Made by a program: the position numbers and the translations under genes. Of a stretch of 64,000 bases of DNA, positions 21,954 to 60,150 are shown piece after piece (position 1 is the stretch's first letter; the number at the start of each line of letters is the position of its first letter). The notes below the pieces were generated by a model that was not told where the DNA came from, did no database searches, and saw nothing but the letters and a program-made list of their open reading frames with translations. The stretch comes from CAVYHJ01 sp963768165 [NCBI: uncultured bacterium] (GTDB lineage Bacteria > UBP4 > UBA4092). The stretch covers positions 62,001 to 126,000 of the forward strand of contig CAVYHJ010000028.1 of the NCBI GenBank assembly GCA_963768165.1, in the 5' to 3' direction.

Positions 21954-21958
21954 AATGT

Positions 21959-23069: not shown

Positions 23070-23078
23070 GCGTCTCCT

Positions 23079-23417: not shown

Positions 23418-23437
23418 AATTTAAAATCCAAATACTT

Positions 23438-23722
23438 TTATTTTAGAGCTGTTGTTTTCTCCGTATGATGACCATGCGCACGGAATGTCCGAGTGGGTGA
23501 AAATTCACCTAATTTATGTCCCACCATATTTTCTGTGACATAGACCGCAATAAATTTTTTGCCATTATGAACAGCAAACGTATACCCCACCATTCTTGGC
23601 GTAATGGTACACCGGCGCGCCCATGTTTTCACGGGTACTTTTTCACCGGAACGATCCAACTTTTCCAGTTTCTTAACTAACTTTTCATCAACATACGGAC
23701 CTTTTTTAAGAGAACGTCCCAT
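23438..23722 (-). CDS. rpsS: 30S ribosomal protein S19
   Basis: 94 residues: [40 protein letters not shown], and the end [19 protein letters not shown]. Confidence 0.98.
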
Positions 23723-23737
23723 AATTTTTCACCTGAT

Positions 23738-24556: not shown

Positions 24557-24568
24557 AATTATTCCGTT

Positions 24569-24853
24569 TTATATAAGTTCTATTTTTTCACCTTTTTTAA
24601 TCGTGACAATTGCTTTTTTATAGGTAGGTTCTTTCCCTACCCGTCCCCGCATCCGGCGTGTTTTCCCTTTCACAATAATAGTGTTTACCTTGAGCACATT
24701 TACTTTAAACATCGCTTCCACGGCTTTACGGATTTCAATCTTATTGGCGTGAAGACGGACAACAAAAGTATATTGATTGTTTTTTTCCGACAGACCGAGA
24801 CTTGCTTCCGTCTGATACGGTTTTACAATTACTTGATTTAATCCTGCTGCCAT
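24569..24853 (-). CDS. rplW: 50S ribosomal protein L23
   Basis: 94 residues, exit-port docking protein. YTFVVRLHANKIEIRKAVEA, MFKVNVLKVNT, and KGKTRRMRGRVGKEPTYKKA are typical. Confidence 0.96.
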   Translation of the reverse strand: MAAGLNQVIVKPYQTEASLGLSEKNNQYTFVVRLHANKIEIRKAVEAMFKVNVLKVNTIIVKGKTRRMRGRVGKEPTYKKAIVTIKKGEKIELI

Positions 24854-24859
24854 AATAAA

Positions 24860-25492
24860 TTATCCGTTACCCAATAAAGATTGTTCGACTTTGGTAATTG
24901 ATGATTTGTCAAAAATAATTTTGTTGGACCGTAATAGATCATAAACACATACGTTATCCACTGTGCAAATTTTCACATCTGATAAATTCCGTACAGACTT
25001 CTCAAACTTTTCATCCGCTTTATTCAGTACTACCAAAGAAATTCCTTCCACATTCAACCTCCGTAATAATTCCGCCACTGGTTTGGTTTTAATTTCATTG
25101 GTCTCGATTTTATCCAGTACCACAATTCCGCCATCGCGCAACCTTTCCGACAAAACCGTTTTCAAGGCTAATTGCGTCTTTTTTTTGGTAGTATGTTGGG
25201 TGTATTTACGCGGTTTCGGCCCGAAAATACTACCACCGCCAACCCATAACGGGGATCGAATAGAACCCACGCGCGCCCGACCAGTGCCTTTCTGTTTCCA
25301 TGGCTTGATTCCACCGCCGCGGACTTCATCGCGTCGTTTAGTGGAAGCCGTTCCACGCCGCCGATTGGCCAACTGGGCCACCACGACTTCTTGAACTACG
25401 GCACTATTGGGTTCAACCGCAAACACTGCGTCTTGCAATTCCAATTCACCAGCTTCTATTCCAGCCATACTATGTAATGAAATCTTTATCAT
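24860..25492 (-). CDS. rplD: 50S ribosomal protein L4
   Basis: 210 residues. [39 protein letters not shown] and [15 protein letters not shown] form the tunnel loop; the C-terminal Rossmann-like half ends VEQSLLGNG. In many bacteria L4 controls the S10 operon; no leader evidence is visible here. Confidence 0.97.
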
Positions 25493-25498
25493 AATAAT

Positions 25499-26161
25499 TT
25501 ATTTTTTAACTCGTATTCTGATTTTAACCGCTTTTTTAATGGTCACTACTCCAGAACCAAATCCCGGAACCGCACCTTCAACTAAAACCAGGTTTTTTTC
25601 CGTATCCACTTTTCGAACAATCAGATTTTGAATGGTAATCTGAGTTGCGCCATATTGTCCTGGCAGGGTTTTGCCTTTGAGAATCCTTGACGGATCCGCA
25701 CTCGCACCCGTACCCCCCGGTCGGCGATGCATCATGGAACCATGAGTCTTCGGTTGTCCACTCCAATTATGCCGTTTCATACCACCCGCAAATCCGCGTC
25801 CTTTGGTAATTCCTGATACATCCACTTTTTCACCTTCTTTGAAGACATCGCACAACACTTTTTGTCCGACTTGATATTCCGCACCTTTTACTACTTTAAA
25901 TTCTTTGAAATGAGTTAAAATCTCATTTTCCAATCCGGCTTTTTTCAATTTCCCTTTGGTCGGCGAATTTAATTTCGGTTTCACGTTCGGTTTGGTAAAA
26001 AGAAAACCCAACTGGACCGCTTCATAGCCTTCCTTTTCGACATTTTTTTTCTGAACGACATATCCCGGTCCAACTTCCAATACTGTAACCGGAACCACTT
26101 CACCTTCTGGGGTGAAGATTTGCGTCATTCCTAATTTTCGTCCTAATAAACCGGATAACAT
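25499..26161 (-). CDS. rplC: 50S ribosomal protein L3
   Basis: 220 residues: LGRKLGMTQIFTPEGEVVPV, VSGITKGRGFAGGMKRHNWS, HGSMMHRRPGGTGASADPSR and KGKTLPGQYG. Standard position after rpsJ. Confidence 0.98.
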   Translation of the reverse strand: MLSGLLGRKLGMTQIFTPEGEVVPVTVLEVGPGYVVQKKNVEKEGYEAVQLGFLFTKPNVKPKLNSPTKGKLKKAGLENEILTHFKEFKVVKGAEYQVGQKVLCDVFKEGEKVDVSGITKGRGFAGGMKRHNWSGQPKTHGSMMHRRPGGTGASADPSRILKGKTLPGQYGATQITIQNLIVRKVDTEKNLVLVEGAVPGFGSGVVTIKKAVKIRIRVKK

Positions 26162-26180
26162 AGACTCTATAATTCCTTAT

Positions 26181-26495
26181 TTATAATTTAATTTCCACAT
26201 GAATCCCCGCCGGTAAATCCAATTGAGTAAGAGCATCCAATGTTTTCTGCGTCGGGTTTAATATATCCAACAATCTCGAATGTGTTTTAATTTCAAATTG
26301 TTCCCGCGATTTCTTATCCACGTGCGGGGAGCGTAATACGGTATACCGGCTAATGCGGGTTGGTAAAGGTACTGGTCCGGAAATAGACGCCCCGGTCTGT
26401 AATACCGTTGCTACGATTTGTCGAGTTGATTGATCCAATAACCGGTGATCGTATGCCTTTAGCCGAAGTCGTATTCTTTGATTTAATGTTTGCAT
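26181..26495 (-). CDS. rpsJ: 30S ribosomal protein S10
   Basis: 104 residues: [60 protein letters not shown] and the end VEIKL. In other bacteria it doubles as NusE. It follows tuf by 23 bases. Confidence 0.98.
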
Positions 26496-26518
26496 ATAAT
26501 TTTATAATTCCAATTTTT

Positions 26519-27721
<1,203 letters not shown>

Positions 27722-27750
27722 AATTCTCTCCCTTTAAACTTTCTAGAAAA

Positions 27751-29841
27751 TTATTTTCTCTCAGGACTCCCTGATGCCAAAACAACTTGTTCTGCTATAT
27801 TTTTCGGTACTTCTTCATAATGAGAAAATTCCATTGTATAGTTAGCACGACCCTGTGTTAGCGACCGTACTGCTGTGGCATATCCAAACATATCCGACAA
27901 GGGAACCAGCGCTTTAACCGCTTGTGCCGTACCCCGCTTGTCAATACCTTGAATCCGTCCACGCCGGGAACTTAAATTTCCAATCACATCACCCATAAAT
28001 TCTTCCGGGGTAACTACTTCTACCGACATAATCGGTTCCAAAAGAATCGGGTGACATTTTTTCGCGCCTGCTTGAAATGCCATCGAAGCGGCAATTTTGA
28101 ACGCCATTTCCGATGAATCCACTTCATGGTACGACCCATCAATCAAGGCAATCCGAATATCCACCACAGGATAACCTGCCAAGACACCGGATTTCATGGC
28201 TTCAATCACACCTTTTTCAACAGCAGGAATATATTCCCGGGGAACTACACCTCCGACAATGTCATTCACAAATTCAAATCCAAATCCAGGTTCCATCGGT
28301 TCAATACGCAATTCCACATGCCCGTATTGCCCGCGTCCACCGGACTGCCGGATAAATTTACCTTCTTGCTCAATACCTTTTTTAATCGTTTCACGATACG
28401 CTACCTGCGGTTTCCCCACATTGGCATCTACGCCAAACTCACGGGTCAACCGATCTACGATAATTTCCAAGTGGAGTTCACCCATTCCGGCAATTAATGT
28501 TTGACCTGTTTCTTCATCGGATGATACTCTAAAAGTCGGATCTTCATCTGACAACCGTGCTAATGACTGTCCCAATTTATCCTGGTCTGCTTTGGTCTTC
28601 GGTTCAATCGCAATTTGAATAACCGGTTCCGGGAAGGTCATCGCTTCGAGAATAATCGGATGATCTTCATCACACATGGTGTCACCGGTACTGGTATGTT
28701 TTAAACCAACCGCCGCCGCAATATCCCCGGTATAGACTTCATCAATATCCTGCCGTTTATTGGCATGCATCTGGAGAAGTCGCCCAATCCGTTCTTTTTT
28801 TTGATCGGTTGCATTAAAAACATAGGACCCGGCCTTGAGCACACCGGAATATACCCGGAAATAGGTTAATTTGCCAACAAAAGGATCTGTCATAACTTTA
28901 AAAGCTAATGCCGCAAACGGTTCTGAATCTTCCGCACGCCGTGTTTCCCGCTCATCATTCCGCGGATTGACTCCACTAATTAAGGGGACATCTAACGGGG
29001 AAGGTAAATAAGCAATCACAGCATCCAATAAAGGTTGTACGCCTTTATTCTTGAAAGAGGAACCCAACATGACTGGAGTAATTTTAGCGGTCAAGGTTGC
29101 TTTACGAATCGCAGTTTTCAACTCTTCTTCAGTCACCGGCTGCGCTTCTAAATATTTATGCATAATAGTTTCATCAGTATCGGCTAATTGTTCCACTAAT
29201 TTATCGTGATATTGTTTGGCTTGATCTTTTAAATCGGCGGGAATATCTACGGTTTCAAATATAGCACCCAGCTCTTCATTTTGCCAAATAATGGCTTTCA
29301 TGGCAACCAAGTCTACAACGCCCTGAAATTTTTCTTCGGCTCCTATGGGGATTTGAAGAATAACCGCATTGGCTCCCAATCGTTTCTTCATCATCTCCAC
29401 GCAAAGGAAAAAGTCTGCACCTACACGGTCCATCTTATTAACAAAAGCAATTCGCGGAACATGATATTTATCCGCCTGCCGCCAGACCGTTTCGGATTGT
29501 GGTTCCACACCGCCAACCGCGCAAAATAATGCGACGGAACCATCCAACACCCGGATGCTCCGTTCGACTTCCACTGTAAAATCCACATGGCCGGGGGTAT
29601 CAATAATATTAATTTGATAATCCTTCCACATACACTTGGTGGTGGCGGAAGTAATCGTGATTCCCCGTTCTTTTTCCTGTACCATCCAATCCATTTCGGT
29701 GGCGCCGTCATGGACTTCGCCCATCTTATGGATTTTGCCGGTATAAAAGAGAATCCGCTCGGTAGTCGTGGTTTTTCCCGCATCTATGTGCGCCATGATA
29801 CCGATATTGCGAACTCTACCTAATTCTATTTGTCTAGCCAT
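27751..29841 (-). CDS. fusA: Translation elongation factor G
   Basis: Translocase GTPase. 696 residues: [20 protein letters not shown], the G2 segment [27 protein letters not shown], then domains II-V with [25 protein letters not shown] and the C-terminal [10 protein letters not shown]. Normal length, so it is the canonical fusA rather than a fusA2 paralogue. It lies seven bases after rpsG, as in str operons. Confidence 0.98.
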
Positions 29842-29847
29842 AATTGA

Positions 29848-30321
29848 TTACCATCTAAAGTGAGCAAAAGCCTTATTGGCTTCCGCCATTTTATGAACAT
29901 CTTCTTTTTTCTTGATTGCCCCGCCTGTATTTTTATAGGCTTCCATTAATTCTTCAGCTAATTTTTCAGCCATCGGTTTACCTTTTCGTTCGCGGGCATA
30001 TAATATCAGCCAGCGAAACGCGAGTGCTTGCCGTCGTTCCGGACGAACTTCAATGGGTACCTGATAATTGGCACCGCCAACCCGCCGTGACCGCACTTCT
30101 ACCAACGGTTTACAATTTTCCACGGCTTGTTTAAAAACCTTGATACCCGGTTCTTTGGCTTTTTCCTCAACAATAGTCAAAGCCTCATAAAAAACCTGTT
30201 CCGCGGTGCTTTTTTTGCCGCCGTACATCATGCAATGGATGAATTTCGTTACCACCGGACTGCTATACACATAATCCGGCTTGGTTTCTACTTTTCTTAA
30301 CACTACTTTTCGTCTTGGCAT
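29848..30321 (-). CDS. rpsG: 30S ribosomal protein S7
   Basis: Head-organising protein. 157 residues: MPRRKVVLRKVETKPDYVYS, MYGGKKSTAEQVFYEAL, VRSRRVGGANYQVPIEV and RKEDVHKMAEANKAFAHF-like KKEDVHKMAEANKAFAHFRW. In E. coli S7 represses the str operon by binding the rpsL-rpsG spacer; a strong stem-loop is present in that spacer here. Confidence 0.98.
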   Translation of the reverse strand: MPRRKVVLRKVETKPDYVYSSPVVTKFIHCMMYGGKKSTAEQVFYEALTIVEEKAKEPGIKVFKQAVENCKPLVEVRSRRVGGANYQVPIEVRPERRQALAFRWLILYARERKGKPMAEKLAEELMEAYKNTGGAIKKKEDVHKMAEANKAFAHFRW

Positions 30322-30352
30322 ACTTTTTTACTCTTTCTCTATTTCTATAGAC

Positions 30353-30397
30353 ACAATTACGAGTTTCAGCCATCCTCAGACTGAAACTCGTAATTGT
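30353..30397 (-). promoter_or_regulatory. 17-bp stem-loop in the rpsL-rpsG spacer
   Basis: ACAATTACGAGTTTCAG and its exact inverse, with an 11-base loop, lie between rpsL and rpsG. There is no T-run after it on the minus strand, so readthrough is expected. The place matches the S7 translational operator of E. coli, but the link is inferred from position only. Confidence 0.5.
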
Positions 30398-30409
30398 ATT
30401 TAATCTATG

Positions 30410-30784
30410 CTATTTCTTCGGGCGTTTTGTCCCGTATTTTGATCTACCTTGATTTCGACCTTCCACACCGACGGTATCCAAAGTCCCGCGGATGATGTGG
30501 TACCGTACACCCGGCAAATCTTTGACACGGCCTCCGCGAATCATCACGATACTATGTTCCTGCAGGTTATGTCCCACCCCGGGGATATAAGTTGTCACTT
30601 CAAATCCATTGGTTAATCGTACCCGCGCTACTTTTCGCAATGCCGAATTCGGTTTTTTAGGAGTTGTAGTATAAACACGCACGCAAACCCCGCGCCGTTG
30701 CGGACATTCCGTCAAGGCCGGTGATTTCGATTTATACCTTACTTTTTCTCTTGCCCCACGCACCAGTTGGTTAATCGTAGGCAT
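30410..30784 (-). CDS. rpsL: 30S ribosomal protein S12
   Basis: Decoding-centre protein. 124 residues: [60 protein letters not shown] and the basic end. Both lysines whose change gives streptomycin resistance are wild type (in [10 protein letters not shown] and GGRVKDLP). First gene of the long operon; a GAGGAG site lies nine bases upstream. No rpoB/rpoC precedes it here. Confidence 0.98.
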
Positions 30785-33154: not shown

Positions 33155-34852
33155 TTACACTTTTTCTTGTTTTGTAGTAAACAAATCGAGCGGGTCATCC
33201 CCAATTTGAATCAGGCGATCATCGAGAACGGCTTTCCCGACTGTGAAATGATAAATGACATGTCCCTGGTCTGGCGGGATAGCAAGATATTTATGCACAT
33301 CGTCATCGAAGAAAGCGCCGATTCCTGTGGCATTCAATCCAAGCGCTTCGGCTGCCAGATATAATCCCTGACCAATAAATCCTGCTTCGCAATGGACATA
33401 CCGGTATCCCCGATTCCCGAATATTTGCGCAGCGGATTTCAAATCGGCTATCATGGAAAAAGCGACAATACAATTTGCCGCGATGGATTGTCCAAGACTA
33501 AGTCCTGCCGCCCAGGAACGCTGGTCGCCGTCTTTTACTTTTTTTAAAGAATGGGATTCAGGATTGTATTGATAAACCCCCGGTTCGATTCCTTCGACTC
33601 GATGGATATAGAGATAGAGCGTAATGAAATCCGCCCCTCTTCCACCAAAAAGATTATTGCGAAAATCAGCACAAAACCCGCGGGTGGCATAGTACATTAG
33701 AGAGCCAAAATTTTCCAAAGACATACTTATTTCATTATTAAATTCCAATGCAGAACGGCGGGTTCGAGAAACTATTCGCAAAGGTTTATCCACCGTATCC
33801 GATTTAGAAAGCCGGACGATATTTTTTTCTCCCTTCTCCTTACCAAGGAGAGGGGTCGGGGGTGAGGTAATCTCATCGGGTAACCGAGTTGCGATATGCA
33901 TATTTTCCAAGGCATAATAAGGCACTTCTTCATTGGATAATTGATTAGGTTCACCAGAAGTCTGAGGAACAAGAGAAAGGATGTCATTCACAATTAATTT
34001 ATTCAATTCCATATTTTCTTTCGGGAGAACCCCCAAAGGAATCATCATCAGGGGCTGTTCATCACTTTCGAGAAGTCCCAATGTTTTTGCAACGGCATTA
34101 TCGGGAAAATGACCGAGACAAAAACCGGGTAATCCCAAAACTTTTGCCGAAGTTAAAAGGGAACAACTCGCATGACCCAAGTCGTGCAAACAATAACGAT
34201 ACGCCCTGTCTTGATATTTCCAGGACTCCCGCCAAAAAATAGAAGTGAAGACGATTAGGATTGGCGATTCCACCGCCCAAGGCGCATTCCCCAGCAATGC
34301 CAAAGGACGGACAAATTCTCCCAGACCCCTTTGTTCCAGAGCATGTTCATTCACGCGATAATGGTACAATCCGTCGGGAATTTCCTGAATCCCTTTAATC
34401 GCCAAATGGGTTTCTGTCGGATGCAAATTACCCGAGGAAGGATTCACTCGCAAAGAATATTTAAAATCAGAATCGCGTACCTGTTTCCACGCGCTAATCG
34501 CCATGCTGTAATAGAGCAATTGGCTTAGGGTTAAAAGGGTTAATAGAGGTTGACGATACCCGTTAGGAATTTCATTGAGACCTTCCAAAGCTTTTAACGT
34601 CCCCTCCTCCGGAAAATCCGGTTTGCGCGGCAAGGGAATTACAGGAACTCTCGAATAAATCCTAAACGGGTTGGGCTGATTATCCCAATCCAGATAATGG
34701 CTGTTGAAATTGACAGATTGATAGGTATGTTTGGTCCGTTCGTGATAATAAAACAATCGTTCTGTTTCCTGATTGTAATATTGAATAACCGGCGGGGTGT
34801 TTTCATCTCTCTTTTTCTTTTCATCCGAATCTTTTTTAGAAAACCAAGCCAT
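33155..34852 (-). CDS. SagB-type dehydrogenase with two nitroreductase-like domains
   Basis: FMN-dependent oxidoreductase family that in some peptide pathways oxidises azolines to azoles. Seen: YYHERTKHTYQSV at residues 35-47, typical of SagB-type proteins; domain 1 at about 95-290 (SLRVNPSSGNLHPTETHLAI, LHDLGHASCSLL) and domain 2 at about 360-555 (RRSALEFNNEISMSLENFGS, GGRGADFITLYLYIHRV, GLNATGIGAFFDDDV). The linker contains an in-frame palindromic repeat (residues about 329-343). No YcaO cyclodehydratase or precursor-peptide gene is nearby, so a RiPP role is not supported; many such duplicated proteins stand alone. Confidence 0.88.
   Translation of the reverse strand: MAWFSKKDSDEKKKRDENTPPVIQYYNQETERLFYYHERTKHTYQSVNFNSHYLDWDNQPNPFRIYSRVPVIPLPRKPDFPEEGTLKALEGLNEIPNGYRQPLLTLLTLSQLLYYSMAISAWKQVRDSDFKYSLRVNPSSGNLHPTETHLAIKGIQEIPDGLYHYRVNEHALEQRGLGEFVRPLALLGNAPWAVESPILIVFTSIFWRESWKYQDRAYRYCLHDLGHASCSLLTSAKVLGLPGFCLGHFPDNAVAKTLGLLESDEQPLMMIPLGVLPKENMELNKLIVNDILSLVPQTSGEPNQLSNEEVPYYALENMHIATRLPDEITSPPTPLLGKEKGEKNIVRLSKSDTVDKPLRIVSRTRRSALEFNNEISMSLENFGSLMYYATRGFCADFRNNLFGGRGADFITLYLYIHRVEGIEPGVYQYNPESHSLKKVKDGDQRSWAAGLSLGQSIAANCIVAFSMIADLKSAAQIFGNRGYRYVHCEAGFIGQGLYLAAEALGLNATGIGAFFDDDVHKYLAIPPDQGHVIYHFTVGKAVLDDRLIQIGDDPLDLFTTKQEKV
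33829..33869 (-). repeat. In-frame palindromic repeat (CCCCTCTCCTT family), copy A
   Basis: Arms CCCTTCTCCTT (33831-33841) and AAGGAGAGGGG (33845-33855), one mismatch, then the tail TCGGGGGTGAGGTA. It encodes SPPTPLLGKEKGE in the linker between the two nitroreductase domains. Homologous to 39171-39214 and 58411-58450. Confidence 0.88.
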
Positions 34853-36686: not shown

Positions 36687-38006
36687 TCAAGTTTTAAGGA
36701 TGAAAGGCCAGCTCATAAGGTCTGCCGAGGACCAAAGACCCGAGAACCAAGTTCGTCTTTTCATGGAAAGGGACAATTTAAGGATCCTTGAATTTCCCTT
36801 CTGAATCAAATAGCCACCTACCGCAAAAACCTTATAGCGAATGGTTTTTAAAAAGGGCTTGGATGTCCCTCCGAGAAGGGCTTGCCGAAAAAGACTCATC
36901 AGATTATACGCCAGCATCACGAAATTTAAGGTAGCCTCGGTGGCCCAAAAGTGATGGGTATTAAACCGGTCTGCCCCAAAGTCATACTTTACTTCTTTGA
37001 TACGGTTTTCGGCATCGGCCCGATTGCGATACAGGTCATACACCATCTTGGGAGACAAGTCTACATTGGTCACAAAACAACTGTAGCGATACTTCTGGTA
37101 GAGGGTTTCGTCCGAAAACAAACGTAATTGTTTTCCCACCGCCTTGGGACGCTTTTCGATTTCCTGCCGAACCATAATCAGACGTCGGGGAGCCTTCCAG
37201 GAATCGGCTTGATAGAAGGTCTCGGCAATCTCCAATCCCTCGTCCAGTTTTAACCATCCCTTCTGCCGGAGGACCACCGCTTGAAGAGGAGGATAAAACT
37301 TGGCCGCCAGGATATAGGACGTCGGACGATGGGTTTCCAGATACTCCATGATTCTATCGCTGTAGAATCCACTATCCGCTCGAATCAACCCTACACTTTT
37401 CCCCTGAAGCTTGTTTAGGGTATCTTCCAAAAAACCTAAAAAATTATTGGTCGTGTGGCTGTCTCCGGACCGCAGCCAAAAATTAGCCACCATCCGACAA
37501 TCGGGAATAAATGCCATCAACGGATGATGCGATTTTCTCCCCCGTTTCTTAGGATTATAGCCCTTCTTGCTCCCTTGCTGTTCCCCATAACGAGTCAGGA
37601 CCGTGGAATCAAAATCCAAGGTATAGTTGTCAAAATGTATATTCCGAAAAAACCATTGATATAAATGCGTGAAAACCCGTTGATTGGTGGCTTGCGTAAA
37701 TTTATTGAAATAGCGTGCAAAGGCTTTATTCCCCGCCATCCGTTTCCAATCGAAGATCTCCTTGACCACTTCATCCTGTCGCGTCACTTCCAAATGCTCA
37801 AAACAATTCGCCCCACACCATACCCCGACCCAAAAGTTCTGGATCAATTGACTGGGACGGTACCCTCGATTAGATCCTTGTTGGGGGAGTGGCGCTTCTT
37901 TCAGGGTCTCCTCCATCTGGATTTGCTCCAGCATCTTCCTCAGGATACTCATCCCACCCCAGGGGGTTATTTCTTTGTCTGTATATTCTATTTTTAGATT
38001 CTTCAT
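36687..38006 (-). CDS. IS1380-family transposase
   Basis: 439 residues, full length for the family. DDE-type residues are visible: LDFDSTVLTRYGEQQGSKKG with KKRGRKSHHPL (first Asp), GLIRADSGFYS (second Asp) and the YRNRADAENRIKEVKYDFGA segment (Glu) with the typical Y-x-x-R-x-x-x-E-x-x-I-K spacing. The frame is intact, so it may be active. I could not identify terminal inverted repeats or a target duplication with confidence; the left side ends near 36600-36680 and the right near 38040-38090. It separates the DUF6978 cassette from the helicase. Confidence 0.9.
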   Translation of the reverse strand: MKNLKIEYTDKEITPWGGMSILRKMLEQIQMEETLKEAPLPQQGSNRGYRPSQLIQNFWVGVWCGANCFEHLEVTRQDEVVKEIFDWKRMAGNKAFARYFNKFTQATNQRVFTHLYQWFFRNIHFDNYTLDFDSTVLTRYGEQQGSKKGYNPKKRGRKSHHPLMAFIPDCRMVANFWLRSGDSHTTNNFLGFLEDTLNKLQGKSVGLIRADSGFYSDRIMEYLETHRPTSYILAAKFYPPLQAVVLRQKGWLKLDEGLEIAETFYQADSWKAPRRLIMVRQEIEKRPKAVGKQLRLFSDETLYQKYRYSCFVTNVDLSPKMVYDLYRNRADAENRIKEVKYDFGADRFNTHHFWATEATLNFVMLAYNLMSLFRQALLGGTSKPFLKTIRYKVFAVGGYLIQKGNSRILKLSLSMKRRTWFSGLWSSADLMSWPFILKT

Positions 38007-38443: not shown

Positions 38444-41206
38444 ATGCAAATACGGTATTTGGAAGCGTTCGGGGTATTGCCTGAAATCATTGATTTATGG
38501 GAAAAGGGGTATGGGAGTGAGTTATTGCCAATTCAGGAGAGGGCGGTGAAAGAGTACGGGGTCTTGGACGGGAAAAGTTTGGTGGTGTTGGGGGCGACTT
38601 CATCGGGGAAGACATTTATCGCGGAGATGGCGAGCGCGAAACGGGCGTGCGCCAGGGAGAAGGTGATTTACGCGGTGTCGTTAAAATCGTTGGCGGAGGA
38701 AAAGTTCCGGCAGTTTCGGAAGATGTACGGGGATTTCGGGATACGGGTGGCGGTTTCTCACCGGGACCGCAGAGAATTCGATTATGCCATTGAGCAAGGA
38801 CATTTTGAAATCGCCATTGTGGTGTATGAAAAACTGCACGGGTTACTCATCCGCAATCCCGATTTATTGCGGGAGACGCGGTTGGTGGTGATTGATGAAT
38901 TGCAAATGCTGGGCGATGAAGACCGGGGTGCGGATTTGGAATTATTGTTGACCATGATGATAGAGGCGACCCGCCAGTCGCCCCTACAAATCATTGGATT
39001 ATCTGCCGTGCTGAATAACCCGGAAGAAATCGCGCGATGGTTGAAGGCGCAATTGCTGGTGCATTATGCCAGACCGGTGGAATTGCGCAAAGGGGTATTG
39101 TGCGATGGAGTGTATCAATACCGGGAACATAATACGGGGACGGTGGGGCAGGAATTTTTTCTCCATCGCTCTTCACCCCTCTCCTTATCAAGGAGAGGGG
39201 GCGGGGGTGAGGTAGACCCGTATCATTCTGAATTGATTTTAGAAACCGTGCGGTTTTTAGCAGAAGAAAAAAACGAATCGAGCATTGTCTTTGTCCCAAC
39301 CAAGGCGTTGGCACGGCAATGGGCGGAGAAATTGTCCGAGAAATCCAAATTGGCACCCGCGAAATCCGTGATGGAATCGTTACGGGAGTATGAGGAGAGC
39401 GCGGCGAGGGAAGTGTTATTGAAAACGTTAGATCGCGGGATGGGATATCACAACGCGGATTTGCCGATGGAGATACGAGAAGTAATAGAGAGAGGATTTC
39501 AAAGCGGAGAAATCAAAATATTATTCGCCACCAGCACGTTGGGACAGGGGTTAAATTTCGCAGCACAGAATACCGTCATCGTGCCGGAAATTTATAAATA
39601 TTCGGTGAAGAGCGGAGGGTTATTGACGTATGCGATTCCGCCGTCCCAGTTGGAAAATCAAGGGGGGAGAGCAGGACGATATGGATATTCGGCGGAATTC
39701 GGGCGGATGATTTTAATCGCGGAATCGGAACATGAAAAGACCATGTTGTGGGCGCAGTATATCAACGGACGATCCCCCGAAAATAACGGGAAGGGACTGG
39801 CGCAACATTTCGAGTTGTTGCACCCGGCATTGGCGGGGACGAGTTGGGAAACGCAGGTTTTGCGATTGGTATCATCGGGATGGTGTAAGACAGAAATGGA
39901 AATTAACCAATTTTTCGAGAAGACATTGAGTGCACCGTTGTTCCCATTGCAGGCGGTGGCGACAGGGAAAACTTTAGCGGATAAAATCAAACAGAATCTG
40001 GAAACGTTAGAGAATGCGGATTTTCTTTCGCAATCACCGGAGGGGAATTTGACGGTAACGGAATGGGGTCAGATTTGCGCATCGAGCGGGGTGCGGATTC
40101 AGACAATGGAGTGGATTAAAAAATGGATTTCATATTTTGACGGGAGTTCGATCGAGCTGTTGGAGTTGCTCTTGATGCTGGCGTTCACGGAGGACGCGAT
40201 GCGATTTCGGATTCCCATCCGGGAGGGGGAAGTGCGGTCGAATTATTACCGGTCACAATTATTGAAAAGGGTTCATGACAGAAATATGGATTCACGAAAA
40301 TTAATAGAGCCGTTGTTGAAAGAGTCGGTGCCCTTGCCCAAGGAAAAGACGGGGGCGATTAAGAAAACCTTGGTGTTGCAGGATTGGATCACGGAAATGG
40401 AGACGGTGGACTTGGAGCGAAAATATAATTTGCACGCGGGAATGATCCGGTTATTGGCAGGAGATATGGTATGGCTGCTGCGGGTATTTATGACGTGTGT
40501 CTCCAACAAGGGATGGACAGAAGAGCAGGTAAAAAATCTGGAACTATTAGCAGAAAAATTAAATTATGGTGTGACGGAATCGGGGTTGGTGTTCGCTCGA
40601 TTACCGATTTGTGGATTGGGTAGGAATCATATCCACGCTTTAGTCCGCGCGGGATTTGAGAAACCGGAGGTGTTGAAAGAGATGCCTTTGCTGGAATTGT
40701 CAAGAATCATCCCTGAAACATTGGCGGAAAAGATATTAAGCCAACTAAATGAGAATATGCCCGAAATACAAATACCAAAGCCCATAATTCAGGATTACAC
40801 ACGAGACCGGATTTGTTTGACGGGGAAAGCGGTGAAACGGCGCACAGTGGTGGTCATGAATGGAAAAGAATTGGAATTAATCAATAGTTCGTATCTGGTG
40901 TTATTGAAATTAGCACGGGCACTCCAAAACCAACGTAATGAAATTCCCCAATCCGGCTGGATTCACCGGGATGAGTTGGATTCATCCGACCAATGGCGGA
41001 ATATTTCACGGTTACGGTGCGCGCTGATGCCGTTCTTAATTGACGTGAAAGAACCGGTTATTGATAATGACAATATGGGGTATTACCGTCTGCGATTGCA
41101 TCCCGAAAATCTGGTCATTGAGGAAGAGAATCATCAACAGCATTGGAATCATGAGTTTCATCCATTGATTCATGAAAAGGTAAAATCCAATATTCCAACC
41201 AGTTGA
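38444..41206 (+). CDS. Superfamily 2 helicase, Ski2/Hel308-like, with C-terminal winged-helix-like domain
   Basis: 920 residues. ATP-dependent nucleic acid translocase. Seen: Q-like LLPIQERAV at 27-35, Walker A GATSSGKT at 50-57, Walker B/motif II DELQ at 151-154 (instead of DEAH/DEVH), motif III LSAV at 186-189, and motif VI QLENQGGRAGR at 402-412. The architecture after the two RecA domains (winged helix, then a helical 'ratchet'-like region, HhH-like RAGFEKPEVLKEMPLLELSR near 740) is that of Hel308-type proteins. The last ~100 residues (VVVMNGKELELINSSYLVLL, then ISRLRCALMPFL and GYYRLRL) resemble an OmpR-type winged helix. Residues about 241-258 come from an in-frame palindromic repeat between the RecA domains. 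Bacterial members are uncommon and often accessory; no defence partner is recognised beside it. Confidence 0.87.
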   Translation: MQIRYLEAFGVLPEIIDLWEKGYGSELLPIQERAVKEYGVLDGKSLVVLGATSSGKTFIAEMASAKRACAREKVIYAVSLKSLAEEKFRQFRKMYGDFGIRVAVSHRDRREFDYAIEQGHFEIAIVVYEKLHGLLIRNPDLLRETRLVVIDELQMLGDEDRGADLELLLTMMIEATRQSPLQIIGLSAVLNNPEEIARWLKAQLLVHYARPVELRKGVLCDGVYQYREHNTGTVGQEFFLHRSSPLSLSRRGGGGEVDPYHSELILETVRFLAEEKNESSIVFVPTKALARQWAEKLSEKSKLAPAKSVMESLREYEESAAREVLLKTLDRGMGYHNADLPMEIREVIERGFQSGEIKILFATSTLGQGLNFAAQNTVIVPEIYKYSVKSGGLLTYAIPPSQLENQGGRAGRYGYSAEFGRMILIAESEHEKTMLWAQYINGRSPENNGKGLAQHFELLHPALAGTSWETQVLRLVSSGWCKTEMEINQFFEKTLSAPLFPLQAVATGKTLADKIKQNLETLENADFLSQSPEGNLTVTEWGQICASSGVRIQTMEWIKKWISYFDGSSIELLELLLMLAFTEDAMRFRIPIREGEVRSNYYRSQLLKRVHDRNMDSRKLIEPLLKESVPLPKEKTGAIKKTLVLQDWITEMETVDLERKYNLHAGMIRLLAGDMVWLLRVFMTCVSNKGWTEEQVKNLELLAEKLNYGVTESGLVFARLPICGLGRNHIHALVRAGFEKPEVLKEMPLLELSRIIPETLAEKILSQLNENMPEIQIPKPIIQDYTRDRICLTGKAVKRRTVVVMNGKELELINSSYLVLLKLARALQNQRNEIPQSGWIHRDELDSSDQWRNISRLRCALMPFLIDVKEPVIDNDNMGYYRLRLHPENLVIEEENHQQHWNHEFHPLIHEKVKSNIPTS
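39171..39214 (+). repeat. In-frame palindromic repeat (CCCCTCTCCTT family), copy B
   Basis: CCCCTCTCCTT (39176-39186), 3-base loop, AAGGAGAGGGG (39190-39200): 11-bp perfect stem, then the tail GCGGGGGTGAGGTA. It encodes SSPLSLSRRGGGGEV in the loop between the helicase RecA domains. Confidence 0.9.
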
Positions 41207-48627: not shown

Positions 48628-48734
48628 GTCATTCTGAGGAGCGAAGCGACGAAGAATCCCTGCCTAAAGTCGTTTTACATCAAGTAGAACATAGAGATTC
48701 TTCGCTCCGTAAAAAGCACTCCGCTCAGAATGAC
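48628..48734. repeat. Dispersed palindromic repeat, family 'GTCATTCTGAGCG', copy 2
   Basis: Starts GTCATTCTGAGGAGCGAAGCG and ends with CGCTCAGAATGAC; the arms carry small internal differences from copies at 2741-2827 and 51464-51572. Between the oxidoreductase and DUF4139 genes. Confidence 0.85.
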
Positions 48735-50613: not shown

Positions 50614-51429
50614 TTACTCAATCACCAGTGGGAGAGCAGGGTCGTATTTGCCGATATCGAACCCAACGGTATTCTTTTTTTTGAGGACAAATTTGGCGGG
50701 GATAAGGATTTTTTTACCATCCACTACCTGATACGCACCCGGTTTTTGTTCAGTGGAGGTTCCCATTTTGGTTTCAATTACCAAGTCACCATTCGGGGAT
50801 AGTTTCACTTTGTCCGCGCCTACAATGGCAAACTGAATGGGTTTGATATCGGCTTTGGGAACGATGTGAACGCTCGTTTCTAACATACTGTTGGTTCCAC
50901 TATAGATGACATCCACCCCGGGATATAAGTTGTGGTATTTAATTTCACTATAGGTGGAAATATTTTGTTTCCATTTGGAGGGGTCGTTGCCTCGGAAGAC
51001 ATTGACTTTTCCAGGGAGAGGCTTGGTACCGATTAATTGAACGGTGGAAGCGGTATTCAAAAATTGTCTACGCAGAACCAAACGCTCTTCCATGACGGCG
51101 GTGGTGGATTTATCCGCACCCGGTAGAGGTGACGGTTTGCCTTTCCTTTCGACCGGGCTATCGCGTTTGACGAATTCCGTAACGACTTCTTTATCCGTGA
51201 AGAACATGGTTCCTCCCGCACCCTCGATATAGAATCTCACCGTAGTATCTTTTTGGCCGTGATTTTCCACGAAGGATATCGGCATTCTTCTATAGGCTTG
51301 CGCTACTTTCGCGCGAACTTCCGGGGATATGTTGGGTTGCGCGGGCGCTTTGGCAGTATCCTGTGCAAAACCCAGAGAGCAAAGGAAAACTATCGAAACG
51401 CAATTTTGCAATACAAACATCTTTTTCAT
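50614..51429 (-). CDS. SBBP-type secreted protein, N-terminal domain only
   Basis: 271 residues from ATG 51429, with signal peptide VSIVFLCSLGFA. The rest is the N-terminal domain that precedes SBBP beta-propeller repeats in large surface proteins: FVENHGQKDTTVRFYIEGAG, VQLIGTKPLPGKVNVFRGND, YSEIKYHNLYPGVDVIYSGT and VGFDIGKYDPALPLVI. In those proteins this point continues DPxLxYSTYLGG and on through the repeats; here a TAA follows LPLVIE at once. No repeats appear in any frame downstream. It is a truncated relic or a stand-alone form. The open frame to 51510 is an artefact of the repeat that overlaps it. Confidence 0.82.
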   Translation of the reverse strand: MKKMFVLQNCVSIVFLCSLGFAQDTAKAPAQPNISPEVRAKVAQAYRRMPISFVENHGQKDTTVRFYIEGAGGTMFFTDKEVVTEFVKRDSPVERKGKPSPLPGADKSTTAVMEERLVLRRQFLNTASTVQLIGTKPLPGKVNVFRGNDPSKWKQNISTYSEIKYHNLYPGVDVIYSGTNSMLETSVHIVPKADIKPIQFAIVGADKVKLSPNGDLVIETKMGTSTEQKPGAYQVVDGKKILIPAKFVLKKKNTVGFDIGKYDPALPLVIE

Positions 51430-51463
51430 ACGAAGCTTTGGCATAAGTATATTTTCCAAATCT

Positions 51464-51572
51464 GTCATTCTGAGCGCAGCGAAAAATCCCAGTCTGTAGA
51501 GACGTAACATGTTACGTCTCTACCATAAAATATAGGTAGAACATAGAGATTCTTCGCTGCGCTCAGAATGAC
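51464..51572. repeat. Dispersed palindromic repeat, family 'GTCATTCTGAGCG', copy 3, with a nested palindrome
   Basis: Outer arms GTCATTCTGAGCGCAGCG and CGCTGCGCTCAGAATGAC. Inside is a second, 28-bp perfect palindrome at 51496-51523 (GTAGAGACGTAACA and its inverse), absent from the other copies. Lies just after the argJ stop. Confidence 0.88.
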
Positions 51573-51582
51573 AAAGCATTTT

Positions 51583-52833: not shown

Positions 52834-52920
52834 AGAAAACTCCTTTATTGGTTACAGAAAAGAAAATACACTTATACCCTGAGATTTTATCGTAAAGAGA
52901 AAGAAAACGAAAGTTACTCT

Positions 52921-54096
52921 TTAACGCAGGTCAGAATCCGCTTCATATTTCCATAGATCGATGGCTAATATAGAAAGACTAAAATGGGTGGTCAACGGAC
53001 TGCCTAATCCCGTAACATAATCATACTTGGTTGTCGCTGTAGTATAAAATCCAGGGGTCCCATTGCTTCCAGTGGTAATGTCACGAAACGTTGTAGCATA
53101 GGCTATCGAATTAGCTGCCACTGTATAAAAATTGGAGTTTATAGCGGTAGTGTCCAGGGCATGAATGGCGGCCCATTGCGGTGCACCGGCACTAGTTCCA
53201 CCAACCCCATACCAACCCGGTGAAGCTAAACCCAAATAAACAGTAAAAGCGGTGTTGTCTGGATCCGCATTATACGAGACATCCGGAACCCCACGAAATC
53301 CAAGAGATGAAGGAATACCGTACGCGGATTGATAACTCGGTTCCGGTTCATACTGGCTTAATCCCCCGCCACTACCGGTCCAAGCGGTTTCCGAAACAAA
53401 TGAACCTCCACCATTTAGAGTCACTGAAGTTCCTCCGACGGCGGTAACATTGACGGAAACTGCCGGCCAACTGACTCCGGTACCGTTGTCTCCGGAAGAC
53501 GCAAAAAAAGCGGCATTATAAGAACTGGTAAAGAGACTATCAAAAGCACTTTCACCCAGAAATTCCGGAGAACCCCAACTCATAGAAATAGCTACTACAT
53601 CCGACCTACCCGCGGCATAGCTTACTCCAGCCGATAAATCGTTGCCACCATCGGTGGAACATTCCACAAATAAGATTTTGGCATTAGGAGCAATGGCATG
53701 CGCCCATTCAACGTCCAAATCTTCTTCTGGATACCAAGGATCTGCCCCTACAGTCGCCAAGGAAATGTTTGGACCTATTGGATGGATTTCAAAATTCCCT
53801 GCTGTGGCGGTAGGTAATCCATACGCCAAACTAAACGTATTAAAATCATTTTGAATACTGGGATTAGCATAGGCATCAATAATGGCAATCGTTCCAGTCC
53901 CACCTGTAGTCGGTAGACCATAGATTGATCGTATGGTAGAGGGGTCTGCAAAATAGTTCACATCGGGATGAATGCCCCTTAAAACAATAATCGGAGGTTT
54001 ACACTTTATATTATCCAATGGACTTCCCGCATTAACCAAACTAACCGTCGAGAATAAAAGAACTGTTGATAGGATAAGAAATCTTTTGTTAATCAT
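52921..54096 (-). CDS. Secreted S53 (sedolisin) peptidase, paralogue 1
   Basis: 391 residues, acid serine-carboxyl endopeptidase. Signal peptide FLILSTVLLFSTVSLVNA. No pro-domain: the catalytic fold starts within 60 residues (RSIYGLPTTGGTGTIAIIDA). Catalytic Glu and Asp in EEDLDVEWAHAIAP, oxyanion Asp in ASSGDNGTG, catalytic Ser in GVGGTSAGAPQWA, and calcium-site residues in FRDITTGSNGTPG with TGLGSP. Sedolisins usually carry a ~180-residue propeptide; here there is none. C-terminal half nearly identical to paralogue 2. Confidence 0.93.
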   Translation of the reverse strand: MINKRFLILSTVLLFSTVSLVNAGSPLDNIKCKPPIIVLRGIHPDVNYFADPSTIRSIYGLPTTGGTGTIAIIDAYANPSIQNDFNTFSLAYGLPTATAGNFEIHPIGPNISLATVGADPWYPEEDLDVEWAHAIAPNAKILFVECSTDGGNDLSAGVSYAAGRSDVVAISMSWGSPEFLGESAFDSLFTSSYNAAFFASSGDNGTGVSWPAVSVNVTAVGGTSVTLNGGGSFVSETAWTGSGGGLSQYEPEPSYQSAYGIPSSLGFRGVPDVSYNADPDNTAFTVYLGLASPGWYGVGGTSAGAPQWAAIHALDTTAINSNFYTVAANSIAYATTFRDITTGSNGTPGFYTTATTKYDYVTGLGSPLTTHFSLSILAIDLWKYEADSDLR

Positions 54097-54149
54097 AACT
54101 TACACTCCTTTAAAAAATTATTTTGAAATTATAAACTTAATTGCCAATT

Positions 54150-54178
54150 AGTTTAGCTCTCTAAACTAGGACTGTCAA
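54150..54178 (-). promoter_or_regulatory. Promoter of S53 paralogue 1
   Basis: TTGACA (54178-54173), 17 bases, TAAACT (54155-54150), on the minus strand. Confidence 0.7.
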
Positions 54179-54188
54179 CTAAAACTCT

Positions 54189-55370
54189 TTAGGGCAGGTC
54201 GGAATCCGTTTCAAATTTCGAGAGTTCGACAGGGACTGCGGAAAGACTAAAATGGGTAGTCAAAGGACTGCCTAATCCCGTGACATAATCATACTTGGTT
54301 GTTGCTGTAGTATAAAAACCGGGAGTCCCATTAGTCCCGGAGGTAATGTCACGGAATGTTGTGGAATAGGCTACCGAATTAGCTGCTACTGTATAAAAAT
54401 TGGAATTGATGGCGGTGGTGTCCAAGGCATGAATGGCAGCCCACTGCGGTGCACCGGCACTGGTTCCATAGGCACCATTCCAACCTCCTTGATAGATGTC
54501 ATAGACCGAAACATAGGCAATAGAATTAGAACCTGAATTATACGAAACATCAGGAACCGCCCGGAATCCATTGGCAGAAACAACACCATAAGTACTTTGA
54601 TAACCCGGTTCGGTCTCATACTGACTTAACCCGCCACCGCTCCCGCTCCAAGCTATTTCCGCCGTTAATTGACCCAGGGAATTAAAATACAGATTCGTTC
54701 CCCCAACACCGGTTACATTGGGTGAAGCCGCAGGATATTCCACTCCGGTTCCACTGTCTCCGGCAGACGCAAAAAAGGCGGCTCCATAGGAACTGATAAA
54801 ATGAGAATCTTCCGTGGATTCCGCACTGGATTCTGACCCACCCCAACTCATGGAAATCGCCACTACATCCGACCTGCCACGGGCATAATCCACAGCCGCA
54901 TATAAATGGTTATTACTATTTGATACCGCTTCCACAAACAATATTTTAGCATTGGGCGCGATCGCGTGAGCCCATTCGACATCCAGACATTCTTCAAAGT
55001 CCCAACCGGATATAGTAGCGTTTTGAATGGTGGTCTTCATCTTATGTATTTCAAAATTGGTGGTTGTTGCTGTCGGTAACCCATATTGCTGGCTGAAGAT
55101 ATTGAAATCATTTTGAATGGTGGGGTCATCATAGGCATCAATAATCGCGATAGTACCGTTCCCGCCTGTAGTAGGAAGGTTATACGCCGAACGGATCTGC
55201 GACGGTGATAAAGCACCCGATATAGGTCCGGCGAACGGTTGAATACCCCTAGGCGGACGAACAATATGTACCGGTGGTTGAAATGTCCTCTCATCCAATG
55301 GACTTTGCGCATAAATAAAATGTGCTATTGATAATAAGATTAAGAAAAGGAGACCTTTTTTGATACTCAT
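54189..55370 (-). CDS. Secreted S53 (sedolisin) peptidase, paralogue 2
   Basis: 393 residues. Signal peptide LLFLILLSIAHFIYA. Catalytic EECLDVEWAHAIAP, SAGDSGTG, and AYGTSAGAPQWA (Tyr where others have Gly). Its last ~90 residues are almost the same as paralogue 1, from QWAAIHALDTTAINSNFY on, suggesting recent duplication or gene conversion. No propeptide. Confidence 0.93.
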   Translation of the reverse strand: MSIKKGLLFLILLSIAHFIYAQSPLDERTFQPPVHIVRPPRGIQPFAGPISGALSPSQIRSAYNLPTTGGNGTIAIIDAYDDPTIQNDFNIFSQQYGLPTATTTNFEIHKMKTTIQNATISGWDFEECLDVEWAHAIAPNAKILFVEAVSNSNNHLYAAVDYARGRSDVVAISMSWGGSESSAESTEDSHFISSYGAAFFASAGDSGTGVEYPAASPNVTGVGGTNLYFNSLGQLTAEIAWSGSGGGLSQYETEPGYQSTYGVVSANGFRAVPDVSYNSGSNSIAYVSVYDIYQGGWNGAYGTSAGAPQWAAIHALDTTAINSNFYTVAANSVAYSTTFRDITSGTNGTPGFYTTATTKYDYVTGLGSPLTTHFSLSAVPVELSKFETDSDLP

Positions 55371-55406
55371 ATATCTTCGTTCCCCCTGATAATTTAAATA
55401 TGTACC

Positions 55407-55435
55407 AGTGTAGGTCTCATAATCAGAAATGTCAA
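55407..55435 (-). promoter_or_regulatory. Promoter of S53 paralogue 2
   Basis: TTGACA (55435-55430), 17 bases, TACACT (55412-55407), on the minus strand. Confidence 0.7.
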
Positions 55436-55447
55436 CTGATAGTCTTA

Positions 55448-56632: not shown

Positions 56633-56680
56633 GATCCTCGCTTCTTGAAATATATTTGGGAATACTATCAATTTTCTCTA

Positions 56681-56709: not shown

Positions 56710-56732
56710 TTAAAAATAATTGTAGGGTACTT

Positions 56733-58011: not shown

Positions 58012-60150
58012 CTATTCGTCCACAATACGCAAATCAATTTCTTTTTTCTGCAAGTCCACTTTCATAATACGTACTTGCACCCTGTCCCCCAATCGGAATT
58101 GGCGGCGGTTATGTTCTCCTTCCAGGGAATATTTTTCTTCTACGAATTTATAATAATCATCGGTCATAGCGCTCACATGGACCAACCCTTCCACCAGGAA
58201 ATCCTGCAATTCCACAAAAAAACCATATGACGCCACACCGGTAATAACGCCGGGATATTCTTTCCCGACATGGTCTTTGAGAAATTCGATTTTCTTAATC
58301 AATTGCGATTCCCGCTCGGCCTCCATCGCCTGCCGTTCCGTAGTGGAGGTATGTTTACAGATGGATTCCAACCGGCGGTATAGTTCATCGGAATTCACCA
58401 CCCCCGTTGATTCCCCCTCCTTAATTAAGGAGGGGGACAGGGGGTGGTGAAGTATCCGACGCAATAACCGGTGCACCACCAAATCGGGATAGCGCCGAAT
58501 GGGAGACGTGAAATGGGTATAAAAAGACGTTGCCAAACCAAAATGACCGACATTTTCCACAGAATACCGCGCTTCTTTCATGGAGCGCAGCAGCACTTGA
58601 TTAATGAGATGCTCCTCAGGATTTCCGGAGACATGATTGAGTAATCGTTGGAGTTCCTTGGGTTCAAGCGGGTCTGTCACTTTCAGTTTATATCCGAGAG
58701 GTCGAATAAATCCGGCAAATTCCATAAGTTTATCTATATCGGGCGACGGGTGGACGCGAAACAGAAATGGCATTTTCTGAGTATGCATGTGCGTAGCAAC
58801 CGTGCGATTTGCCGCCAGCATAAATTCTTCAATAATCTGATGGGACAGGTTATGTTCCACTTTGCGGATTTCAATCGGTTTCCCTTTTTTATCGAGAATC
58901 ACTTTAGTTTCCGGCAGATTGAAATCAATTGACCCTTGCTGTTTTCGTTTATTGCGGAGTAACATTGCCAACTCGGACATTCTTTCCAGCAAGGGCAAAA
59001 CTTCTTCATGCTGTTTTTTGAGGGAACGGTCTCCGCCTGCTAAAATCGCCTGTACTTGTTCATAATTAAACCGGGTATGCGTGCAAATCACCGAATTGGC
59101 AAATTCTGAATGAATTATATTTCCCTTTTTATCAAAATCCATAATACAACTGAGTGTCAACCGATCAACATTCGGATGCAGACTACAAATCCCGTTAGAT
59201 AATTCCGGCGGCAGCATCGGAATAACACGGTCAACCAAATACACACTATTTCCCCGCAAGCGCGCTTCCTGATCCAGCGCGTTGCCCTCTTTTACATAAT
59301 GACTGACATCCGCAATATGTACTCCAAGCCGAAATCCATTTTCTGTCTTTTCCAGAGAAACCGCGTCATCCAAATCTTTAGCATCTTCCGGGTCTATGGT
59401 AACAATCATTTGATCCCGTAAATCCAACCGACCGTCCAATTCAATCACCTGCTCCGCCAAAGTGCCCGCTTCCCGCAACACCCGCATAGGAAACACCGTA
59501 GGCAATTCATGTTTTTCAATGATGGATTGAATATCCACACCCTGTTCGTCGGGATACCCAAGAACGGAAAGGATTTCCCCTTCGGGATTTAACTGTTCCG
59601 ATTTCCACTCTAAAAGACTAACGACAACTTTTTGTCCCTTCTGTGCGCCTAGGGTTTTCTTGCGATTGATATAAATATCATGAAACAAGCGTTTTTCATC
59701 GGGAACAACGAAACAAAAATTCCGGTTGTAATCGAAAACACCGACAATCTGGTCATGGGCGCGTTCCAAAATTCGGATAATGCGACCTTTGGGTTTTCCC
59801 ATCCGGTTTTTCCCCTCGACGCGAACCACGACTTTGTCATCATGCATCGCTGTCCCGAAATCCCGCCCTTCGACAAATACATCCACCTGCCGGACATCTT
59901 CTGGAATCACATAACCGAATCCCTTGGAAGACGCTTGCAGTATACCCACTACCAAATTCATGGCCGTCGGCAATCCAAACCTCTGCCCCTTAATGCGGAT
60001 TAATTTACCCTGCACTACCATCTTTTTGACTTGTTCTTTTAACGCCATGCGATGATCTCCCGATAACCGTAATCGTTTTGCCAGCTCTCGCAACAAAAAA
60101 GGCCGTGGGAAATTCGATTGGATAAATTTCAGTAATTCTTTTTCATCCAT
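58012..60150 (-). CDS. rnr: Ribonuclease R (3'-5' exoribonuclease)
   Basis: 712 residues, degrades structured RNA. N-terminal winged-helix-like part (about 1-60), cold-shock OB domains (~65-190), RNB nuclease domain with the metal-binding IDPEDAKDLDDAVSLE near 252-267, RVHPSPDIDKL and HFTSPIRRYPDLVVHRLLRR near 546-565, and a C-terminal S1 domain (~625-712). About residues 568-581 (HHPLSPSLIKEGE) come from an in-frame palindromic repeat at 58411-58450, in the variable loop after the PIRRY helix. Full-length otherwise. Start ATG 60150 lies next to a CTAG-rich repeat. Confidence 0.95.
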   Translation of the reverse strand: MDEKELLKFIQSNFPRPFLLRELAKRLRLSGDHRMALKEQVKKMVVQGKLIRIKGQRFGLPTAMNLVVGILQASSKGFGYVIPEDVRQVDVFVEGRDFGTAMHDDKVVVRVEGKNRMGKPKGRIIRILERAHDQIVGVFDYNRNFCFVVPDEKRLFHDIYINRKKTLGAQKGQKVVVSLLEWKSEQLNPEGEILSVLGYPDEQGVDIQSIIEKHELPTVFPMRVLREAGTLAEQVIELDGRLDLRDQMIVTIDPEDAKDLDDAVSLEKTENGFRLGVHIADVSHYVKEGNALDQEARLRGNSVYLVDRVIPMLPPELSNGICSLHPNVDRLTLSCIMDFDKKGNIIHSEFANSVICTHTRFNYEQVQAILAGGDRSLKKQHEEVLPLLERMSELAMLLRNKRKQQGSIDFNLPETKVILDKKGKPIEIRKVEHNLSHQIIEEFMLAANRTVATHMHTQKMPFLFRVHPSPDIDKLMEFAGFIRPLGYKLKVTDPLEPKELQRLLNHVSGNPEEHLINQVLLRSMKEARYSVENVGHFGLATSFYTHFTSPIRRYPDLVVHRLLRRILHHPLSPSLIKEGESTGVVNSDELYRRLESICKHTSTTERQAMEAERESQLIKKIEFLKDHVGKEYPGVITGVASYGFFVELQDFLVEGLVHVSAMTDDYYKFVEEKYSLEGEHNRRQFRLGDRVQVRIMKVDLQKKEIDLRIVDE
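58411..58450 (-). repeat. In-frame palindromic repeat (CCCCTCTCCTT family), copy C
   Basis: CCCCCTCCTT (58413-58422), 4-base loop AATT, AAGGAGGGGG (58427-58436), then ACAGGGGGTGGTGA. It encodes HHPLSPSLIKEGE inside RNase R. Same design as copies A and B though more diverged. Confidence 0.85.

What the first reader, a model, noticed from the sequence alone, without database searches (positions are those of the whole stretch)
39171..39214. Palindromic element inserted in frame in a helicase, with relatives in two other proteins
An 11-bp perfect hairpin with a G-rich tail (GCGGGGGTGAGGTA) lies within the helicase gene, and diverged copies sit at 33829-33869 (SagB-like linker) and 58411-58450 (RNase R loop). 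All three are in frame, free of stop codons, and fall at variable loops or domain linkers; the genes are unrelated. They encode Ser/Pro/Gly/Lys-rich peptides. This is the arrangement of the Rickettsia palindromic elements, a mobile repeat tolerated inside proteins. The three copies are on different strands relative to each other yet avoid stops, so the element seems built to be readable in at least two orientations or has been selected after insertion.
Basis: partly seen in the sequence, partly recalled or inferred. Interest (0 to 1): 0.82.

Follow-up and report, generated by a model that had tools for sequence, protein, structure and literature searches.

The report
Triplex-forming DNA repeat inside protein genes
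A short repeated piece of DNA that could fold into a three-stranded hairpin sits, without breaking the reading frame, inside three unrelated bacterial genes, and similar repeats sit in frame inside some cyanobacterial proteins, so a repeat known mainly from between genes can also lengthen proteins.

Summary
The three palindromes are real and beyond chance (3 matches against 0.01 expected). All lie in frame in intact genes, between or beside domains. The helicase and SagB copies are one family (91% over 43 bp); the RNase R copy is a second family with the same architecture.

They do not fit the Rickettsia palindromic elements. They fit the intrastrand-triplex motif (TM/PIT; Holder et al. 2015, PMC4666352): a hairpin whose G-rich tail mirrors its purine arm. 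A scanner knowing only this rule finds exactly these three sites and nothing in 20 shuffles. Tail and arm match across families (68 and 52 stretches matched, 3 and 4 swapped; 119 perfect matches against 41.6 expected).

Holder et al. report the motif as always intergenic in E. coli K-12, and it is depleted from ORFs in viral contigs. Yet in-frame copies recur: at least ten in a Pseudanabaena methyltransferase, four in a Planktothrix homologue, one in a Stanieria Cas10d; the homologues fetched that lack those residues have no motif.

Untested: genome-wide counts and empty sites in close relatives, because the window's genome is not held. The mover is unknown.

The parts
39173..39214 (+). Copy 1 (family 1) in the helicase gene: arms 39176-39186 and 39190-39200, tail 39203-39213; encodes SPLSLSRRGGGGEV, G strand is sense
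33827..33869 (+). Copy 2 (family 1) in the SagB-type gene: arms 33831-33841 and 33845-33855 with one mismatch, tail 33858-33868; in-frame block 33830-33868 encodes TSPPTPLLGKEKG, C strand is sense
58396..58449 (.). Copy 3 (family 2) in the RNase R gene: palindrome 58412-58437 with a tail on each side; 54 bp, 18 codons HHPLSPSLIKEGESTGVV
38444..41206 (+). Host gene 1: Hel308-like DEAD/DEAH helicase, 920 aa
33155..34852 (-). Host gene 2: SagB-family nitroreductase-type protein, 565 aa
58012..60150 (-). Host gene 3: ribonuclease R, 712 aa (NCBIfam equivalog TIGR02063, 837 bits, cut-off 598)

Best explanation
These are copies of a small dispersed repeat of the intrastrand-triplex kind (TM/PIT, the kind of the E. 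coli TM_ECO motif). As a single strand the DNA could form a hairpin whose G-rich tail folds back on the purine arm (G.GC, A.AT, T.AT triplets). The repeat spreads as a non-autonomous element. Copies that happen to land in a linker with an open frame and a length that keeps the frame are tolerated and translated as inserts of about 13-18 residues rich in Pro, Ser, Gly and charged residues. The arm-tail match is kept because the element's nucleic-acid fold is selected, not its peptide. Shown: architecture, arm-tail covariation in the class, in-frame residence, absence of the motif in homologues lacking the residues. Inferred: mobility, near-neutrality for the proteins, a single-stranded intermediate; the mover is unknown.
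For: Near-identical DNA in two unrelated genes read in different frames and senses. An architecture-only scanner returns these three sites and 0 hits in 20 shuffles. Matched arm-tail pairs 68 and 52 stretches, swapped pairs 3 and 4 (Fisher p 5e-27). In hairpins not used for selection, 119 of 211 with G-rich tails match perfectly against 41.6 expected, maximum 56 in 200 shuffles. RNase R relatives lack 10-12 residues at the site in 31 of 31 rows, 30 distinct proteins. Independent in-frame cases: Pseudanabaena methyltransferase, ten copies; Planktothrix homologue, four; Stanieria cas10d, one; the four other methyltransferase and four other Cas10d homologues fetched have none.
Against: No empty site in a close relative was seen; the window's genome and phylum are unknown. 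The SagB linker is not alignable, and six homologues are only 3-7 residues shorter there while one is 9 longer; the 3eo7 structure has nearly the same length. 5xgu RNase R is only 4 residues shorter. The covariation test does not remove relatedness among elements, and stretches from one contig are counted separately. Holder et al. found no support for a stable triplex in duplex DNA or in vivo. No mover was found.
Confidence: 0.72

Rival explanations
1. A REP-type element moved by a RAYT (REP-associated tyrosine transposase), as in the GTAG- and CGTC-tagged superfamilies, some members of which lie inside genes.
For: Size, palindrome, inverted pairs in other genomes, and known intragenic REPs (PMC3733652, section 15). 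A GTAG lies just after the tail of copy 1.
Against: No GTAG or CGTC tag at copies 2 and 3, and the GTAG at copy 1 is 11 nt from the hairpin foot. The arm-tail mirror rule is not named as a REP feature in the parts I read. RAYT presence could not be tested: no genome.
Confidence: 0.13
2. A regulatory or structural signal kept in these genes, for example a pause, attenuation or mRNA-stability element acting within the transcript.
For: Covariation shows selection on structure in the class as a whole.
Against: Unrelated host genes, both senses relative to transcription, mid-gene sites; depletion from ORF interiors (60 of 137 against 85% expected). PIT motifs are reported without promoter or terminator activity (citing an earlier study).
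Confidence: 0.07
3. Ordinary low-complexity linker sequence that resembles a palindrome by convergence; no insertion at all.
For: Linkers are variable in the SagB and helicase families.
Against: 0.01 hairpins expected against 3 found; 91% identity over 43 bp between genes read in different frames; no scanner hit in shuffles.
Confidence: 0.03

Closest known systems
Intrastrand triplex motifs, TM_ECO / PIT elements (Holder et al. 2015, PMC4666352; Hoyne et al. 2000 seen only as cited there)
   Same: Hairpin plus G-rich tail that mirrors the purine arm; core GGAGAGGG-NNN-GGGGTGAGG shared with listed E. coli copies; dispersed, many copies across bacteria.
   Different: A/T-richer inner stem, so the exact TM_ECO pattern is not met; copy 3 has another sequence; these lie in frame inside genes, whereas the K-12 motif is reported as always intergenic.
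Intragenic REPs of the GTAG and CGTC superfamilies (PMC3733652)
   Same: Short palindromic repeats in frame inside unrelated ORFs, adding residues.
   Different: No consistent GTAG or CGTC tag; arm-tail triplex rule instead.
Rickettsia palindromic elements (Ogata et al., seen only through review PMC10969869)
   Same: Palindromic repeats in frame in unrelated proteins.
   Different: Those are about 150 bp with a conserved encoded peptide; these are 38-54 bp with different peptides.

Membership tests
Intrastrand triplex motif (TM/PIT), general | Hairpin with purine arm followed by a tail that mirrors the arm (G.GC, A.AT, T.AT), at most one mismatch in each relation | tested here: met
   all three copies and nothing else in the window; 0 in 20 shuffles
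Intrastrand triplex motif (TM/PIT), general | Forms a triplex as a single strand in vitro | not testable with these tools
   needs CD or NMR
TM_ECO in the strict sense | CCCTCNCCC N3-6 GGGNGAGGG N3 GGGNGAGGG | tested here: not met
   pattern held by eye against the copies: inner stem reads CTCCTT/AAGGAG and the tail of copies 1 and 2 ends in T
REP, GTAG or CGTC superfamily | GTAG or CGTC tag at one end of the hairpin | tested here: not met
   tag searched 15 nt before and 20 nt after each hairpin: only copy 1 has a GTAG, 11 nt away
REP, GTAG or CGTC superfamily | Cognate RAYT (Y1 transposase) in the genome | not testable with these tools
   no genome held
Rickettsia palindromic element | About 150 bp with a conserved encoded peptide | tested here: not met
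   38-54 bp, three different peptides
Rickettsia palindromic element | In-frame residence in unrelated ORFs | tested here: met
Mobile element in general | Empty site in a close relative | tested here: inconclusive
   152 spanning alignments among viral-contig loci gave 5 gapped and 1 two-piece candidate, none clean; not testable for the window itself

The most novel reading that the evidence does not exclude
Intrastrand-triplex repeats are a class of in-frame protein-lengthening elements found in more than one phylum and defined by DNA structure rather than sequence: at least three sequence families (two here, one in Planktothrix) enter ORFs, single genes can collect ten copies, and the arm-tail match persists even inside coding sequence.
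Probability: 0.45. Interest if true: 0.66.

Novelty: new variant of a known kind. Interest (0 to 1): 0.52.

Why it matters
Intrastrand-triplex motifs are common, unexplained bacterial repeats discussed mainly as intergenic. Copies in frame inside enzymes would show that they reach genes and survive there, would explain odd Pro/Ser/Gly-rich inserts in annotated proteins, and would make their spread datable against protein homologues. The ten-copy Pseudanabaena methyltransferase puts this within reach in a named organism. Arm-tail covariation across sequence families gives an evolutionary handle on whether the three-stranded fold matters.

Tried and rejected
Kinship with Rickettsia palindromic elements: rejected on length and peptide. 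Design for readability in several frames: rejected. A gene bias of the window copies: not significant (0.67 at the window's coding fraction; 0.085 at the 44% in-ORF rate seen in viral contigs). A long exact pattern in viral contigs: 0 hits. Empty sites among fetched viral contigs: 152 spanning alignments, 5 gapped and 1 two-piece candidate at 66-85% identity, none clean. Copy 1 in 5,426 E. coli genomes: one weak match (E 2). Rfam at gathering score: one tRNA only. Naming the organism: RNase R against genome contigs gave one Erysipelotrichaceae locus at 36% identity, so the window's phylum stays unknown and the RNase R relatives compared come from around that distant genome. Structure prediction, fold search and covariance models were not run.

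Full report
OBSERVATION. The window has three hairpins CTCCTT-loop-AAGGAG and no more (3 against 0.01 expected). Copies 1 (39173-39214) and 2 (33827-33869) are 91% identical over 43 bp and share AAGGAGAGGG-NNN-GGGGGTGAGGT (2 against 0.00 expected). Copy 3 (58396-58449) has a different arm and tail and a tail on each side. Each lies in an ORF without a stop: a Hel308-like helicase, a SagB-type protein and ribonuclease R. They are read as SPLSLSRRGGGGEV, TSPPTPLLGKEKG and HHPLSPSLIKEGESTGVV. Each copy has a G tail on the window + strand; it is the genes that differ in strand. Lying in genes is not surprising in itself: my gene list covers 87.5% of the window, so three of three has probability 0.67.

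ARE THEY INSERTIONS? RNase R: 31 rows, 30 distinct proteins, all lack 10-12 residues between window residues 560 and 600. The rows are L001 and the 30 best loci, in which 55 of 60 genomes matched; the other genomes' loci were not compared. Among solved structures, 8cdu lacks 10 residues at the site but 5xgu only 4. Helicase: six bacterial plasmid homologues are 7, 7, 7, 7, 7 and 9 residues shorter between residues 240 and 262, and one archaeal homologue 15; this is a variable loop between the helicase domains, so insertion is likely but not proved. SagB: six homologues are 3-7 residues shorter between residues 320 and 350 and one is 9 longer, the linker cannot be aligned with confidence, and 3eo7 has nearly the same length; here the case rests on DNA identity with copy 1. 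None of these loci (30 RNase R, 7 helicase, 7 SagB) has a triplex motif in the stretch fetched.

WHAT IT IS. Read backwards, each tail repeats the purine arm, with G opposite G and A or T opposite A. That is the rule of purine-motif intrastrand triplexes. A scanner using only this rule (9-nt stems, at most one mismatch in each relation) returns the three sites, copy 3 on both strands, and nothing in 20 Markov shuffles. Holder et al. 2015 (PMC4666352; I saw the outline, passages, sections 15 and 16, and part 1 of 2 of section 20) give the E. coli pattern CCCTCNCCC N3-6 GGGNGAGGG N3 GGGNGAGGG, 3,610 occurrences in 262 proteobacterial genomes. They report it as always intergenic in K-12, triplex-forming as a single strand in vitro, without support for a stable triplex in vivo, and linked to genomic instability. 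Copies 1 and 2 share its GGAGAGGG and GGGGTGAGG but not the strict pattern.

COVARIATION. In viral contigs, arm type 2 with its own tail is found in 68 stretches, arm type 1 with its own tail in 52, and the swapped pairs in 3 and 4; Fisher p 5e-27. Stretches from one contig are counted separately, and two separate family histories could give this alone. I therefore took hairpins that match none of the selecting patterns: 535 of 737. Of these, 211 have a G-rich tail, and 119 of the 211 match perfectly over 8 nt against 41.6 expected with shuffled tails (maximum 56 in 200 shuffles). The matches include distinct arms such as GGAGAAGG with GGGATGAGG and AGGGGGAGGG with AGGGTGGGGG. The shuffle does not remove relatedness, and the loci were selected for holding at least one motif.

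WHERE SUCH REPEATS LIE. Of 137 occurrences in them, 126 have a pyrimidine arm (up to two mismatches), and 60 lie inside greedily called ORFs against 85% expected, so the class avoids genes. In 50 plasmid records matching a Pseudanabaena pair, the best place lies under an annotated gene in 11, under none in 36, and 3 records have no annotation; these gene tables are incomplete.

IN-FRAME COPIES ELSEWHERE. Copy 1's best plasmid match lies in cas10d of Stanieria cyanosphaera (86%, E 3e-4), read as LPLPQPLSYKERG. Four Cas10d homologues, 45-69% identical, are 10-13 residues shorter there and have no motif. A 1,580-residue methyltransferase of Pseudanabaena galeata has ten copies found by the scanner, four inverted pairs and two singles, four with the G strand and six with the C strand as sense, all in frame. 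Five homologues, 55-59% identical, lack most of these residues. Four of the five have no motif. The fifth, from Planktothrix agardhii, has four copies of a third sequence family at another site, three of them spaced 42 bp apart; of five P. agardhii records with this array, two depart from the full length or sequence. A Leptolyngbya protein has two more copies; its homologues were not examined. On the Pseudanabaena plasmid the scanner finds 15 copies and none in five shuffles: ten in this gene, two in the nearby exonuclease gene and three between genes, by my comparison. BLAST counts 19 places for a pair there, so the scanner misses diverged copies.

HOW IT WORKS. The best reading is a small dispersed element selected for its fold, which sometimes lands in a gene; copies that keep the frame at a linker survive and are translated. 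Mobility is inferred from near-identical copies in unrelated genes. The mover is unknown, no clean empty site was found, and whether a triplex forms in the cell is open.

KNOWN AND NEW. In-frame REPs in proteins are known (PMC3733652; passages and section 15), as are Rickettsia palindromic elements (PMC10969869, passages). In the listings of searches I saw no paper whose title or shown abstract reports intrastrand-triplex motifs in frame in genes; that library holds open-licence PMC papers only, and subscription papers, including the PIT papers, were not seen. I file it as a new variant of a known kind.

LIMITS. The organism is unidentified and its genome not held. Genome-wide copy number, gene-versus-spacer counts and empty sites in close relatives remain untested. 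Species names for the PDB entries are not given by the calls and are left out.

Noticed in passing
2738-2833, 51458-51575, part at 48684-48709: Another dispersed inverted repeat (TGTCATTCTGAGCG...), 26-bp arms 37-59 nt apart. The ORF at 50614-51510 begins inside the second copy (…GFFAALRMTD…), so its start may be misplaced.
   Followed up: no
60151-60189 and 60621-60659: Inverted CTAGTTTCTAGT-type repeats, 85% complementary over 39 nt, flank a gene of the 23S_rRNA_IVP family PF05635 at 60183-60578.
   Followed up: partly
52916-57920: Four neighbouring paralogous ORFs of about 390-407 aa on the - strand, with repeats of 60-84% identity at a step of about 1.27 kb.
   Followed up: no
36687-38006: DDE transposase gene (PF13701) between host genes 2 and 1; nothing links it to the motif.
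   Followed up: no
11084-30784: Looks like the large ribosomal-protein operon (S12 confirmed by Pfam; the rest by my reading of sizes and translations), useful for naming the organism.
   Followed up: no
L003 893-5635 and L290 310-4320: Cyanobacterial methyltransferase genes with ten and four in-frame triplex motifs of two different sequence families, missing from other homologues.
   Followed up: yes
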